The notes under the pieces were generated by a model. It saw only the letters and a list, made by a program, of their open reading frames with translations. It was not told the DNA's origin and made no database searches. Shown here in pieces: positions 13,858 through 20,679 of a stretch of 36,024 nt of DNA. The stretch covers positions 1-36,024 of the forward strand of contig BPGT01000006.1 of NCBI GenBank assembly GCA_026003175.1, read 5' to 3'. Every line of letters starts with the position of its first letter. The stretch's first letter is position 1. The position numbers and the translations under genes were made by a program. This DNA comes from Armatimonadota bacterium. GTDB lineage: Bacteria; Armatimonadota; HRBIN16.

Positions 13858-15156
13858 ATGAGAAAACTGAGAGAGTTGATTCATGCGCCGCCGGTGTGGG
13901 TGAACCCGCAACACCCGGTGAAGATGGCTATAGTGCTGATGCAGGGGCTTCAGGTGGATGTGCTGCCTGTGCGAGATGGCGACCAGGTGGTTGGCATGGT
14001 CGCGGCAAGGCAGCTGCTTGGTGTCGCCGAGGAGACCTGTGTGGCCGAGGTGATGAGCACCGAGGTGTTGCTTTTGGACGCAGAGATGCCTGTCCGGGAC
14101 GCGGCGGCAAAGATGGCGGAAAACGGCGCAGGCGTTGCCTTTGTCATCAACGATACGCTGGCAGGCATGGTACGGGCGATCGATCTCATCCCGGAGGTGT
14201 CCCGCTCGTACGACCCGCTCACCAAACTGCCCTGGCAGGATGCCCTGCGCGAGTGGAGCATCGAGAAACTGCGCACCGGACACGAAATCTCTATCCTCTT
14301 TTTTGATATCGACCGTTTCGGGCAGTTCAACAAGCAGTATGACCACGTGACCGGCGACCGCGTGCTGGAGATGGTGGCGCGTACCATAGAGCGCGAGCTG
14401 GACCCCGATTTGACCATCCTCTGCCGCTATGGTGGTGACGAGTTCGCCGTTGCTACACTGTATATGAGTGATGAGGCGCAGCAGCTCGCTGCCCGTATCG
14501 CCCGCCGGGTGGAGGAGATACAATTTCCCAATGTGCGCGAGGTGATTTCGGTTTCATACGGTGTTTTCGGGGGACGGCGCACCCGCGAGCGCGAGATGGT
14601 ACACTATGCTGCCACGGTGGACGACCTCATTGTCCGCGCCAGCCAAATGTGCCTGCAAATGAAACAGCGTAAGGGCGCTCTGGCAATGCTGCAACTCCCT
14701 TTGCCCGGAGTGGGGTCAGAGGAGCATACCGAGCCGCGTGTGCAGGTAACAGGAATCAGTTTCATCACACAGGGCAAGGAGGCGGAAGCCAGCGTGGAGC
14801 TGTCAATCGGCAGACTGCGCACCTTGCGGCAAGTGCGTGGCGACGCCAAGCAGCCACCCGAGGAGCTGATGGTGCAGGCAGCACGCGATGCGCTGGTTGC
14901 GCTGGTGCCCGGCATAGGTGCTGTGCAGGTGCACCATGTCTCCAAAGTCACGGTGGAACTACACGAGAAGAACGAGAAGATGGATGGTGTGATGGTGGTG
15001 GCGGAGTTGCAAACTGCTTCGGGTAGTCAACTGTTGTCCGGGTTCGCTCCTGTTCGCGAAAACGTACAGCGTGCGGCGGTGAATGCTCTGCTCCACGCGC
15101 TCAATCGTCCTCTGGCGAAGTGGCTCTCTCAATCGCGGCTAAGCTCCGCCACGTGA
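13858..15156 (+). CDS. CBS-domain diguanylate cyclase with extra C-terminal domain
   Basis: Makes cyclic di-GMP from two GTP. Residues 1-115 form a CBS pair (an LPVRDGDQVVGMV motif near 38-50 and VAEVMSTEVL near 62-71) that likely binds an adenine nucleotide. The GGDEF domain begins DPLTKLP (about 119) and has FFDIDRFGQFN (metal site, about 149) and the signature RYGGDEF (about 190-196), so catalysis should be intact. No RxxD product-inhibition site stands at the usual distance before GGDEF. Residues about 295-425 form a further domain clearly similar to the end of the protein at 19996-20679 (EAEASV, a SGxxLLxGxAxVR stretch, RAAVNALLHALNR). The gene end overlaps the convergent TauE/SafE gene by 56 bases. 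Confidence 0.88.
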   Translation: MRKLRELIHAPPVWVNPQHPVKMAIVLMQGLQVDVLPVRDGDQVVGMVAARQLLGVAEETCVAEVMSTEVLLLDAEMPVRDAAAKMAENGAGVAFVINDTLAGMVRAIDLIPEVSRSYDPLTKLPWQDALREWSIEKLRTGHEISILFFDIDRFGQFNKQYDHVTGDRVLEMVARTIERELDPDLTILCRYGGDEFAVATLYMSDEAQQLAARIARRVEEIQFPNVREVISVSYGVFGGRRTREREMVHYAATVDDLIVRASQMCLQMKQRKGALAMLQLPLPGVGSEEHTEPRVQVTGISFITQGKEAEASVELSIGRLRTLRQVRGDAKQPPEELMVQAARDALVALVPGIGAVQVHHVSKVTVELHEKNEKMDGVMVVAELQTASGSQLLSGFAPVRENVQRAAVNALLHALNRPLAKWLSQSRLSSAT

Positions 15157-16037: not shown

Positions 16038-17657
16038 TCATCTCTGCCTCTCCCACACCTCAATGCGCGGGAAAGGATACAACATATCGTGAGGCACATT
16101 GCGCTTGCCGAAGTGGATGCCGTCCACGCGAAACGTTGTGTCAAATCGCGCCGCCCGATGGAAGGAGCGGTTCAACTCATCCAGAAACGCCTGCGCAGGC
16201 GCGTGGCGTACCCGTACCGCGTCATCCACTTCGAACTGACTCAGCACCACCACCTGCGCCCGCCGAATCACGTTCACATCCCACTCCGCACCCGGCACCA
16301 GCAGACGGTACTCCTTGACCTCTCGGGCGCGCTCCGCCCTGCGTGACGGTTGCAGTTCGCCCCAGTATGGGCTGAGGGGCGGCGTGTAGAACCAGGGAAT
16401 AGTGGCAAAGCCGATGCGTGTACCCTGTGGCACGTGCTGACGTATCCACTCCAGCGCTTGCAGACGTGGGTCGGGTTGCAGCAGAGCAACGGCCACCGCG
16501 ATGCCCCAGATGAGCGTGTAAACGGCGATAGACCCTGCCCCCGCCGCCACGACGACCCTGCCCGCCTGCTGGGTATTCCGCCACGCTTCCGCTATCAGCC
16601 ACGCGGTCAACACCATCAGCGGAGGCAAGATGGGTAGCAGATACCGCGCGAACCGCACGGCAAAGGAGCCGAGGAACAGATAGTACACCACCACGAAAAC
16701 CCACAGGATGAGCACCCGCGGTCGGCGCGACAGGGGAGCAATCAGCACGCTGAGCGTTGCCAGCAGCAACAGCGGCAGTCCCAATCCGAAGCGCAGATTC
16801 GTCCAGTAGTGATAAACCCAGCCCAAGCCGGTATTTACAAAAACCAGACCATGCCCCTCGCGCACATGTTTTGCCTCATACCCGAAGTCGCGCCAGAACT
16901 CTTGCGGGTTCATCCACACGCCCGGGCAAAAGAGCAGAAAAGCCACCCCGCTTATCGCTACCAGAAGCACAGCCTTGCTCAACCACGCTTCGCGGTGCTC
17001 CGTACCTCGTAGCCATAAAGCCAGCAGGGGAGCTATAAGCACCAGCGCAGTGTTGTAGCGAGTAGCGGACGCCAGCCCTACCAGCACCCCTGCCGTTATC
17101 AGGATACGCTTTGCACCGGTCTCATGCAGTTTCAGTGCGGCGAGTAACACGCCGGTAGTGAATAATGTAGCGGTAGCGTCGGTAGTGAGGAAGTGGCAGT
17201 GCAGGGTGTGTAGAGGCACTACCGCCAGCAACAACGTGGCTACCGCCGCACAACGATGTCCGCACACTCGCTTGCCTGTCTCCCATACCAGCCAGCAGGT
17301 GAGTACTCCCATGACGACAGATAACCAGCGACCGGTCAGATAGAGTCCGGCGAACGCCTCATATTGCGCGACTTCGGTGGGGAGGGTAATCCACCCGTAA
17401 GTGGAGCCGATGAGAATAGCAAGGTGCAGAAGATACAGGTACACCGTGCCGTAGTTGTAGAAGTGCGGGTCAATCTGTCCATGCGGAATGTCCAGTCCCA
17501 GCGTATAGCCCAGTATTACCCACTCGTCGGGGTGAAAGGAGAAGTAGTGCGAGGGGTCAGGTATTCCCCAGCGAATACCCATCGCGCGAAACAGAAAGGC
17601 TACCGCCAGAACGATAACCAGCGCCAGCCTGAAGAAACGCTCAGGCGTACCGTTCAT
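16038..17657 (-). CDS. GT-C glycosyltransferase (GT39/PMT-like)
   Basis: Integral membrane protein of about 539 residues. After the first membrane helix comes FHPDEW (about 41-46), the Asp-Glu pair in the first periplasmic loop that is catalytic in GT-C enzymes using lipid-linked sugars. About eleven to twelve hydrophobic segments follow, then a soluble C-terminal domain of about 150 residues. It resembles bacterial dolichyl-phosphate-mannose-type (PF13231) proteins. The acceptor is unknown. I chose ATG 17657, which overlaps the upstream HD-GYP gene by 17 bases; the longer TTG start (17717) lies deeper inside that gene. No strong Shine-Dalgarno, so translation is probably coupled. Confidence 0.8.
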   Translation of the reverse strand: MNGTPERFFRLALVIVLAVAFLFRAMGIRWGIPDPSHYFSFHPDEWVILGYTLGLDIPHGQIDPHFYNYGTVYLYLLHLAILIGSTYGWITLPTEVAQYEAFAGLYLTGRWLSVVMGVLTCWLVWETGKRVCGHRCAAVATLLLAVVPLHTLHCHFLTTDATATLFTTGVLLAALKLHETGAKRILITAGVLVGLASATRYNTALVLIAPLLALWLRGTEHREAWLSKAVLLVAISGVAFLLFCPGVWMNPQEFWRDFGYEAKHVREGHGLVFVNTGLGWVYHYWTNLRFGLGLPLLLLATLSVLIAPLSRRPRVLILWVFVVVYYLFLGSFAVRFARYLLPILPPLMVLTAWLIAEAWRNTQQAGRVVVAAGAGSIAVYTLIWGIAVAVALLQPDPRLQALEWIRQHVPQGTRIGFATIPWFYTPPLSPYWGELQPSRRAERAREVKEYRLLVPGAEWDVNVIRRAQVVVLSQFEVDDAVRVRHAPAQAFLDELNRSFHRAARFDTTFRVDGIHFGKRNVPHDMLYPFPRIEVWERQR

Positions 17658-18333
17658 GGTAGGAGGGGCTCGGCTGTCTGGACGTTTCCGCGCGGACAAT
17701 CGCCTGAAACACCTCAAAAACTCGCGGGTCGTACCGCGTTCCCTTGCCTGCTGCTATCTGCTCGGCTGCCTGCAGGCGCAGGGAGGCGTTACCTAGGTCT
17801 TTCCCGCGCAGTGCGTCCGCGTAATCACCTGCGATGTGTAGAATGCGCGACGCCAGGGGAATCTCCTCTCCCTGCAACCCATCGGGATAACCACTGCCGT
17901 CCCAATTTTCATGGTGATGGCGAATAAGCGTTGCCAGTCTCGCCAGCGAGGGGACCTGCTCCACCATCCTCTGGCTCAGCACGCTATGCAGTTTTAGCAT
18001 CTCTTCCTCGTCGCTGGTGAGAGGTCCTTCTTTGTTCAGAATACCGTATGGGATGCTAACCTTGCCGATTTCCTGTAGTAGCGAGGCGAACTCGATATCC
18101 CGTATCATTCGAGACGGCAGTCCCAGTCGTTCGGCGATTTGCGTGGCGTAGTATGCCCGCAGGCGTGCGCTGCCGGTGGTGCCGTGTTCCCGAATCTCCA
18201 CGGCGCGTGCCAACGCCTGCAGCCCCTGTTGGTAGTCGCGACGAATCTGCCCGGGTAGCCACACCAGGGCATAGTAGCACAGGAAAACAACGCTACCCAT
18301 CACCACGAGATATACGAAGGTGGTGAAGCTCAT
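17641..18333 (-). CDS. HD-GYP-like protein with degraded active site
   Basis: 230 residues. One N-terminal membrane helix (about 5-27) is followed by an HD-GYP fold. Canonical HD is replaced: the usual HDIGK reads QEIGK (about 90), and the preceding conserved His of the HSxRV element is absent (SARLR). The later elements remain: KLHS (about 113), HHHENWDGSGYPDG (about 137-150) and an AGDYADAL segment. Loss of the metal-binding His-Asp pair predicts no phosphodiesterase activity, so a c-di-GMP sensor or partner role is more likely. The start codon overlaps the stop of the intact HD-GYP gene (ATGA), so the two are translated together. Confidence 0.82.
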   Translation of the reverse strand: MSFTTFVYLVVMGSVVFLCYYALVWLPGQIRRDYQQGLQALARAVEIREHGTTGSARLRAYYATQIAERLGLPSRMIRDIEFASLLQEIGKVSIPYGILNKEGPLTSDEEEMLKLHSVLSQRMVEQVPSLARLATLIRHHHENWDGSGYPDGLQGEEIPLASRILHIAGDYADALRGKDLGNASLRLQAAEQIAAGKGTRYDPRVFEVFQAIVRAETSRQPSPSYHERYA

Positions 18334-19682
18334 GCTACCGCCTGCCTCTTCACCATCGCCGACACCGCGTGTTCGACGTGCTCAACCCCGAATTCACCCG
18401 CTGCCAATGCCTCGATAAAGGCTTTAACCACTTCGGGGTGGAACTGTGTGCCCGCTCCCTTTTGCAGCTCCGCGATGGCTTCCGGTACCGTTTGGGGTTT
18501 GCGGTAGGGACGTTGTTCACCTTTCTCGTCATCGCCCACCATCGCGTCGAAAGCGTCCACTACAGCAATAATATGCGCCTCGATGGGGATTTCGCCCATT
18601 TTCAGCCCGAACGGATAGCCCTTGCCATCAGGACGCTCGTGGTGCAGAGTAATCCACAACGCCACTGGTTCGATATGCTTGATTCCGCTAACAACCTCTG
18701 CCCCTTTCAGGGGGTGGGTGCGTATCATCTGCCAGTCCGCCTCAGTAAGGGGGGTCAATTTGTTCAGCACCGCTTCGTCGATGCCCACTTTACCCAGGTC
18801 GTGTAAAGCGGCTGCCTCGGGCAGGAGTTCGATGTGACGCGCTGGTACACCCAACCGGGTGGCCACGCTCATCGCCATCTGGCTGGCGCGTTGTAAATGT
18901 CCCGAGGTGTAGGGGTGAGCGTGCTGCACCAGCAAGCCCAGCGCGCGGATGGTTTCGCGATAGTTCCGTATCTGCTGGATGCGCTGGCGGAAGCACTCCC
19001 GGGCGGCAAGGAAGGGCACTGCCACCAGAACGAAGCCTGCGACGTGATAGGCGCGCAGCAGCAGTATCAACAGGATGGACAGAGGCATCACCAGGATGTA
19101 GGTGGGCACCACGATACGCAGGCTATGCCGCCAGACGCTTGGCAGAGGTTCCCGGTTATACAAAGCGCTCGCCACAGACACCAGCAGAGCGTTGACTACC
19201 AGGTAGACCACTGCCGCCAGAGTCAAAGCCACCAGCGTTTGTGTTGTCAGAAGGGTTGCTGCGCTGGTGCTGAACCAGTAGTACACCACTCCAGCAGTGC
19301 CTGCACTAATGACAGATTGAGCGGCGTTGAACAGCCCCCAGCGCAAGCGATAGCGTATCGGGTAAGAGCGATTCAGCAGCACTCCAGCCAGCAACGTAGG
19401 CAGGCTATCCACCGCCATAGCAGGCACTATGCCGTACATGGCGATGACGGTGCACACAATGGGGAACCCCAGCGTTACCTGAGTGCCGCCGTGCAACAGG
19501 GAGACCGGCAACATTTCGGTTGCCACGGCGAACAGCAGAATAGTGACTGCCCCTACCGGCAGCCATTGCGCTGGGGGCGTGCCAGACATGAACACCAGAG
19601 CCAACCCTGCTGCCACCAGGATGATGCCGCGATGATAATATCGTATTAGCAGCTCGCTCCACTTGGGCGGGATGTCCCGCAT
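18330..19682 (-). CDS. Membrane HD-GYP c-di-GMP phosphodiesterase
   Basis: Predicted to hydrolyse cyclic di-GMP. About 450 residues: residues 10-250 hold seven or eight hydrophobic helices resembling a MASE-type sensor. The HD-GYP domain then has HPYTSGHLQRAS (first His, about 262), LHDLGKVGI (about 292), RTHPLKGAE (about 322), HHERPDGKGYPFG (about 346) and VVDAFDAM (about 372). All metal ligands and the GYP loop are intact. The start ATG 19682-19680 has AAGGAGA 7 bases upstream; the longer frame to 19745 lacks one. Downstream genes overlap it, and a 38-aa peptide gene precedes it. Confidence 0.9.
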   Translation of the reverse strand: MRDIPPKWSELLIRYYHRGIILVAAGLALVFMSGTPPAQWLPVGAVTILLFAVATEMLPVSLLHGGTQVTLGFPIVCTVIAMYGIVPAMAVDSLPTLLAGVLLNRSYPIRYRLRWGLFNAAQSVISAGTAGVVYYWFSTSAATLLTTQTLVALTLAAVVYLVVNALLVSVASALYNREPLPSVWRHSLRIVVPTYILVMPLSILLILLLRAYHVAGFVLVAVPFLAARECFRQRIQQIRNYRETIRALGLLVQHAHPYTSGHLQRASQMAMSVATRLGVPARHIELLPEAAALHDLGKVGIDEAVLNKLTPLTEADWQMIRTHPLKGAEVVSGIKHIEPVALWITLHHERPDGKGYPFGLKMGEIPIEAHIIAVVDAFDAMVGDDEKGEQRPYRKPQTVPEAIAELQKGAGTQFHPEVVKAFIEALAAGEFGVEHVEHAVSAMVKRQAVA

Positions 19683-19995: not shown

Positions 19996-20679
19996 CTACT
20001 CGTCCTGGAGTGCTGCGGTCCGGCGATTCAGTGCGTCCAGCACCGCGTTGACCACGGCGCGGTTTAAATCGTTACGTACCAACGCCGAGCCGGTGAGAAC
20101 ATCCTCACCGTACTGCGACAGCATATTCACCACAGCGACCACAATCTGCCTGCCTGCTACCATCACGTTGGGGTTGATGTCCTCCACAGCAATCTGGTCT
20201 GTCATGTTGCAGGCTTGCTCCACCGCACGCACCGTGGCGCTGGCAATCAAGCGCAGCTGATTGGACTGACTTCCCTGACCGGCAGCTTGCCCGGTGAAGG
20301 TTTCAGAGCCACGCTGTAAATGCACGCTGGCTTCCGCCTTCGTACCATTGATAGTGAGTTCTACATCGGCAATGCGGAGACGGTTTCGCATGGAGCGCAA
20401 CAGGGCGCCCTGCATCTGGGCGACGCTAATTTTGCGGTGGTCCACTACAATCCCATGAGATGTCAGTAGAGCCGATTCGATATCCCGTACCACCTGCTTG
20501 GGCGAACGATTGGAGGAGACCAGCACGTGAATCTCCTGTATCGCTCCGTTCTTGTCCACCACGACACGGGCTGAGAGAACATCGCGCAATTGACGAATTA
20601 CTTTCTCGACCTGCTCGGCAGGCACCTGTCCAATCGTGCTCTTGCTCGTTGCCGGCTCTCCTGTCGGCTGGTGGGACAA
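19996..20679 (-). CDS. Conserved two-part protein sharing a domain with the GGDEF protein
   Basis: 227 codons from TTG 20679-20677 (AGGAGG eight bases upstream). The first half (about 20-90) has LSARVVVDKNGAIQEIHVL and RSPKQVVRDIESALL, a conserved bacterial segment of unknown function that I have seen in Firmicute-type genomes. The second half (about 98-222) matches the C-terminal 130 residues of the CBS-GGDEF protein: EASV then a LIASATVRAVEQ segment, IVVAVVNML, GEDVLTGSALVR and RAVVNAVLDALNR. Soluble, no membrane helix. The link to c-di-GMP genes on both sides suggests a signalling or scaffold role, which is inference. It leads the minus-strand cluster. Confidence 0.75.
   Translation of the reverse strand: MSHQPTGEPATSKSTIGQVPAEQVEKVIRQLRDVLSARVVVDKNGAIQEIHVLVSSNRSPKQVVRDIESALLTSHGIVVDHRKISVAQMQGALLRSMRNRLRIADVELTINGTKAEASVHLQRGSETFTGQAAGQGSQSNQLRLIASATVRAVEQACNMTDQIAVEDINPNVMVAGRQIVVAVVNMLSQYGEDVLTGSALVRNDLNRAVVNAVLDALNRRTAALQDE

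What the first reader, a model, noticed from the sequence alone, without database searches (positions are those of the whole stretch)
17641..19682. Intact and degenerate HD-GYP proteins in one coupled pair
The upstream membrane protein keeps HDLGK and all ligands, while the downstream one has QEIGK and no first His yet keeps HHHENWDGSGYP. A start/stop overlap fixes their ratio. This looks like an enzyme-pseudoenzyme complex.
Basis: partly seen in the sequence, partly recalled or inferred. Interest (0 to 1): 0.5.

Follow-up and report, generated by a model that had tools for sequence, protein, structure and literature searches.

The report
Conserved HD-GYP enzyme–pseudoenzyme membrane pair
Two neighbouring membrane proteins, one with the metal-binding site of a signal-degrading enzyme and one in which that site is broken, have been kept together in distant relatives, which suggests that the broken one is a working partner or sensor and not a decaying gene.

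Summary
Upstream gene U (18330-19682, minus; MASE9-type membrane domain plus HD-GYP) keeps HDLGK and the seven metal ligands common to the family. Downstream gene D (17641-18333, minus; one membrane helix, stalk, HD-GYP) reads QEIGK, lacks H189, probably D305, and the RPY nucleotide triplet, but keeps H250, H276, H277 and GYP. U and D genes overlap in 26 of 27 pairs read, occur in six families of the phylum, and are present or absent together. D is under purifying selection (median dN/dS 0.107). So D is a maintained, predicted non-hydrolytic HD-GYP; that it binds U is inference. Degenerate HD-GYPs are known (DvhD, PA2572) and so, from recall, is a fused active/degenerate chain (V-cGAP3); the two-gene, co-translated form appears to be a new variant. 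Extras: U has His for catalytic Asp183 in 26 of 27, and in 13 of 27 a four-cysteine rubredoxin-like insert beside the nucleotide site.

The parts
18330..19682 (-). U: MASE9-type multi-helix membrane domain, long stalk helix and HD-GYP domain with HDLGK and seven metal ligands; His at the position of PmGH D183
17641..18333 (-). D: one N-terminal membrane helix continuous with a stalk helix (residues 3-48), then a degenerate HD-GYP (QEIGK, no H189, HHHENWDGSGYP kept)
18330..18333 (-). ATGA start/stop overlap of U and D; the same 4-nt overlap in 10 of 10 genus members
16038..17657 (-). PMT_2-type membrane glycosyltransferase whose likely ATG (17657) lies inside the end of D; a homologue was clustered in 23 of 28 loci examined
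19996..20679 (-). uncharacterised 227-aa protein just upstream of U, no Pfam match; a homologue was clustered in 19 of 28 loci examined

Best explanation
U and D form a conserved two-gene c-di-GMP module in the membrane. Shown by sequence: D has lost a metal ligand that hydrolysis needs in PmGH, keeps its predicted fold, is under purifying selection, and is co-inherited and overlapped with U. Inferred: D is a non-hydrolytic HD-GYP partner that dimerises with U through the membrane-proximal stalk helices and thereby regulates U's phosphodiesterase output, or relays its nucleotide state to co-encoded membrane proteins such as the glycosyltransferase. In the sister families D probably still binds c-di-GMP (R314, Y316 and Y285 mostly kept). 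In this genus it looks reduced to an allosteric or scaffold role.
For: HD_5 matches in both. H221 absent in 28 of 28 D and present in 27 of 27 U; two further D (L017, partial L155) read MDMGK and MDIGK, and two further U (L017, L154) read HDIGK. H221A, H189A and D222A essentially abolish PmGH activity (passages of PMC4159591). D and U each form one group in two trees: 100/100 with 138 rows and 99/99 and 100/100 with 82 rows after four long or odd rows were left out. Pair in 10 of 10 genus genomes. In 28 genomes of five other families: U in 21, D in 20, neither in 7. Start/stop overlap in 26 of 27 pairs. dN/dS median 0.107 for D (40 usable pairs of 45) and 0.079 for U (38 of 45). D model (mean pLDDT 91.9): one helix from membrane to stalk; best solved matches PA4781, DvhD and PmGH. 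DvhD dimerises mainly through stalk helices (section read); the PmGH dimer uses its GAF domain and long helix (passage).
Against: No call tests a U-D contact; two regulators of one nucleotide can share an operon without binding. U's D183 is His in 26 of 27, and D183A abolished PmGH activity, so U may not be an ordinary enzyme. D keeps H250, H276, H277 and, outside the genus, H189 and D222, so it may still bind metal. PMC12943098 says HD-GYP domains may accept changes in key residues without losing activity (section read). In G240 both U and D are broken into pieces in the assembly, which could be error or decay. The larger tree places another degenerate HD-GYP of this genome (L002, branch 3.75) inside D.
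Confidence: 0.5

Rival explanations
1. D is a stand-alone c-di-GMP receptor of the DvhD kind: it binds the nucleotide without hydrolysing it and is co-encoded with a phosphodiesterase only so that both act on the same local pool.
For: DvhD, a degenerate HD-GYP (SQ for HD), binds c-di-GMP and failed to hydrolyse it and is among the closest solved sequences and folds. In the 18 aligned D outside this genus R314 is kept in 15, Y316 in 16, Y285 in 18.
Against: In the 10 D of this genus R314 is Lys in 8, Gln in 1, Arg in 1, and Y316 is Leu, Ile, Met or Ala in 10 of 10. The D model leaves no room for a periplasmic domain. It does not explain why D was not seen without U in the 38 genomes searched for both.
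Confidence: 0.3
2. Both proteins are non-canonical: U's His183 makes U weak, specialised or inactive, and the pair is a two-headed sensor instead of enzyme plus partner.
For: His at 183 in 26 of 27 U, against Asp in 73 and His in 1 of 81 control domains; D183A abolished PmGH activity.
Against: The seven shared metal ligands and K225, D308, R314 and Y316 are invariant in 27 of 27 U; His could act as a general acid (inference).
Confidence: 0.15
3. D is still a hydrolase with an altered metal site or another substrate; Gln and Glu replace His and Asp as ligands.
For: H250, H276, H277, K225 and GYP are kept in 10 of 10 genus members. E185A and D305A of PmGH kept some activity.
Against: H221A, H189A and D222A essentially abolish activity in PmGH; position 221 varies among D orthologues (Q, M, R, A, E), unlike a chemical replacement.
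Confidence: 0.1
4. D is a decaying duplicate of no function.
For: Loss of metal ligands; both genes are broken in the G240 assembly.
Against: dN/dS 0.066-0.166 over 40 pairs; D kept beside U in six families.
Confidence: 0.02

Closest known systems
DvhD of Desulfovibrio vulgaris (PDB 9rbz, 9rc0; PMC13090378)
   Same: membrane protein with stalk helix and an HD-GYP whose HD motif is lost while GYP is kept
   Different: DvhD also lost the double His and has periplasmic dCache and cytoplasmic PAS domains; D keeps HH, is short, and is encoded beside an HD-GYP with the full ligand set
V-cGAP3 of Vibrio cholerae (PDB 5z7c)
   Same: one chain with two HD-GYP-like stretches, the first matching only around a GYP-like segment; that one is active and the other degenerate is recalled, the paper was not read
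   Different: fused in one chain; here two overlapping genes, both membrane-anchored by prediction
PA2572 of Pseudomonas aeruginosa (YN-GYP)
   Same: HD-GYP protein with altered HD, reported inactive in c-di-GMP hydrolysis (passage of PMC3774798)
   Different: no coupled HD-GYP partner mentioned in the two passages seen
PmGH (4mcw) and PA4781 (4r8z)
   Same: fold of D and ligand set of U
   Different: D lacks H221 and other ligands; U has Tyr at 185 (unlike PmGH) and His at 183

Membership tests
HD-GYP domain family (Pfam HD_5), upstream U | HD_5 profile, HDxGK, HHExxDGxGYP and seven shared metal ligands | tested here: met
   position 183 deviates
HD-GYP domain family (Pfam HD_5), downstream D | HD_5 profile and HHExxDGxGYPxxxxxxxI motif | tested here: met
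HD-GYP domain family (Pfam HD_5), downstream D | HD motif and full metal-ligand set | tested here: not met
   H221 absent in 28 of 28; D305 aligned in 2 of 28
MASE9 sensor domain (U) | Pfam MASE9 above its cut-off | tested here: met
   35.5 bits, cut-off 24.3, for the window's U; not matched in the one sister-family U scanned at E 0.001 (L128)
DvhD/LapD-type c-di-GMP receptor (D) | nucleotide-contact residues kept | tested here: inconclusive
   mostly kept outside the genus; R314 and Y316 mostly changed within it
DvhD/LapD-type c-di-GMP receptor (D) | periplasmic sensor domain | tested here: not met
   D model: first helix is residues 3-48, so only two residues precede it
DvhD/LapD-type c-di-GMP receptor (D) | binds c-di-GMP without hydrolysis | not testable with these tools
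   needs an assay
Enzyme-pseudoenzyme complex | physical interaction of the two proteins | not testable with these tools
   no complex prediction or assay was available

The most novel reading that the evidence does not exclude
U and D are an obligate heteromeric c-di-GMP switch, a trans HD-GYP enzyme:pseudoenzyme pair. In many sister-family members the U active site is further gated by a rubredoxin-like four-cysteine domain inserted between D308 and R314, making the module a redox- or metal-responsive phosphodiesterase.
Probability: 0.3. Interest if true: 0.65.

Novelty: new variant of a known kind. Interest (0 to 1): 0.45.

Why it matters
Inactive partners are familiar for GGDEF and EAL proteins (recalled) but little described for HD-GYP in the papers seen here. 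This genome (97% complete) has ten GGDEF matches, no EAL match and six HD_5 matches, so HD-GYP proteins are its only recognised c-di-GMP phosphodiesterases, and a maintained, co-translated inactive partner would be a control point of the system. The conserved loss of one ligand gives a natural set for testing what a dead HD-GYP is for.

Tried and rejected
Decay of D: rejected on dN/dS and conservation. Assembly error as the cause of QEIGK: rejected, since 10 of 10 genus members have it. Recent tandem duplication: rejected, since U and D HD-GYP domains are about 31% identical and form separate groups. In the larger tree another degenerate HD-GYP of this genome (L002, branch length 3.75) fell inside D and the bootstrap had not settled. 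A smaller tree without L002, L062x38, L081x0 and L004x8 and with every third remaining control kept (26 controls, PmGH, 28 D, 27 U) still groups D at 99/99 and U at 100/100; where L002 belongs stays open. The best phylum matches to D outside the six families whose loci were fetched (L035, L036) read HDIGK and HDVGK; the match list was capped. One search counts one in-frame TGA in two D matches (L014, L022); the D ORFs used from these genomes are 227 and 229 aa, so I take the stops as C-terminal. My first motif table was misaligned and was replaced; my first PmGH numbering had a wrong offset and was replaced.

Paper searches, listings only: HD-GYP + degenerate + dimer, 'degenerate HD-GYP', V-cGAP3, HD-GYP + pseudoenzyme (none), HD-GYP + Armatimonad (none), HD-GYP + rubredoxin (three papers, not opened), tandem or inactive HD-GYP, MASE9 or HD-GYP (the eight listed hold no MASE9). 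No title or abstract start listed described this pair; the library lacks most subscription journals. Papers opened: PMC4159591 (passages), PMC13090378 (abstract, passages, section 10), PMC3774798 (two passages), PMC12943098 (passages, sections 16 and 17).

Full report
What is there. Two minus-strand genes overlap by ATGA: U, 18330-19682, 450 aa, and D, 17641-18333, 230 aa. Pfam gives HD_5 for both and MASE9 for U only. I take the phylum to be Armatimonadota from the titles of L040 and L041; another close record (L038) is titled Anaerolineae. The D model (AlphaFold2, 28 sequences, mean pLDDT 91.9) is one helix running from membrane into a stalk (3-48) and then an HD-GYP fold. Its best solved matches are PA4781 (4r8z), DvhD (9rbz) and PmGH (4mcw). 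The U model is weaker (mean pLDDT 81.1).

State of the active sites. I numbered positions by PmGH (metal ligands E185, H189, H221, D222, H250, H276, H277, D305; passages of PMC4159591). The window's U has all but E185, which is Tyr. The window's D has S189, Q221, E222 and G305 and keeps H250, H276, H277, K225 and GYP. Across 28 aligned D, position 221 is Q (11), M (7), R (7), A (2) or E (1) and never H; H250, H276, H277 and GYP are kept in 28 of 28. H189 and D222 are kept in 18 of 18 outside the genus and in 0 of 10 within it. D305 is kept in 2 of 28, but the alignment there is uncertain in the genus because of one extra residue. K225 is Asn in 4 of 28. Across 27 aligned U the seven ligands are invariant. 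In 81 other HD-GYP domains, gathered with D as bait or as HD_5 matches of this genome, 78 have HD, one HE, one YD and one AQ. Outside the alignments, L017 and the partial L155 also lack the His in D, and L017 and L154 keep it in U.

A deviation in U. D183 of PmGH, whose change to Ala abolished activity, is His in 26 of 27 U and Asp in one. In the 81 controls it is Asp in 73, Glu in 3, His in 1, other or gap in 4.

Relatives. The pair is in 10 of 10 genomes of the genus. In 28 genomes of five other families a profile search finds U in 21 and D in 20 (one partial), and neither in 7. The U without D (G228) ends 48 nt before the end of its contig. In G231 the two lie at the ends of different contigs. 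In G240 both are in pieces. The start of D, as chosen by my ORF script, overlaps the stop of U in 26 of 27 pairs: by 4 nt in all 10 genus members and by 8 to 65 nt in 16 of the other 17; in L131 D starts after the stop. D and U form separate single groups. D has median dN/dS 0.107 (range 0.066-0.166, 40 of 45 pairs usable) and U 0.079 (38 of 45).

Neighbourhood. Of 28 loci compared (the window and L117-L143, several cut by contig ends), a PMT-type glycosyltransferase clusters in 23 and the 227-aa unknown protein in 19. In one sister-family locus (L128) the genes that follow D are DUF5317, the glycosyltransferase and a tyrosine recombinase; these DUF5317 and recombinase clusters occur in 11 and 14 of the 28 loci. 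Upstream genes there look like infC, rplT, pheS and pheT (recognised by eye, not by a family search). In this window the glycosyltransferase ATG at 17657 lies inside D.

How it most likely works. Shown: D is a maintained HD-GYP domain lacking a ligand that hydrolysis needs in PmGH. Inferred: it is a non-hydrolytic partner of U, joined through stalk helices; DvhD dimerises mainly through such helices and PmGH through its GAF domain and long helix. DvhD shows that such a domain can bind c-di-GMP and change conformation. The contact residues R314 and Y316 are mostly kept in sister families but not in this genus, so here a scaffold or allosteric role is more likely than sensing.

Known and new. 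Degenerate HD-GYPs are known singly (DvhD; PA2572; Leptospira proteins). V-cGAP3 has two HD-GYP-like stretches in one chain (the split in activity is recalled). I saw no description of a two-gene pair in the listings named under Tried and rejected. I call it a new variant of a known kind.

Noticed in passing
U orthologues L128-L130 and L132-L141 (13 of 27 in A3): A four-cysteine CxxC...CPxCG insert, rubrerythrin-type rubredoxin-like, lies between D308 and R314 of the HD-GYP domain. Pfam RUBY_RBDX is above its cut-off in L133 (31.8 against 26.5), below it in L138 (22.5) and was not reported for L128 at E 0.001. The window's U lacks the insert.
   Followed up: partly
window 18330-19682, residue aligned to PmGH D183: His replaces the catalytic Asp in 26 of 27 aligned U orthologues, against Asp in 73 of 81 control HD-GYPs.
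   Followed up: partly
window 19996-20679 and 13858-15156: The unknown 227-aa protein shares a C-terminal region with the nearby CBS-GGDEF protein (29% over 132 aa, E 2e-8) and has no Pfam match at E 0.001.
   Followed up: partly
G000:C1:1133776-1134261 (L002): A second degenerate HD-GYP in the same genome (AQVGL for HDxGK, QNKHFDGSGF for the GYP region); in one tree it falls inside D on a very long branch.
   Followed up: partly
whole genome G000: Ten GGDEF, three PilZ, six HD_5 and no EAL matches.
   Followed up: no
L081 3069-5630: Another Armatimonadota contig has two overlapping membrane-type HD-GYP reading frames, HDVGM then HDIGK, so the His is kept in both.
   Followed up: no
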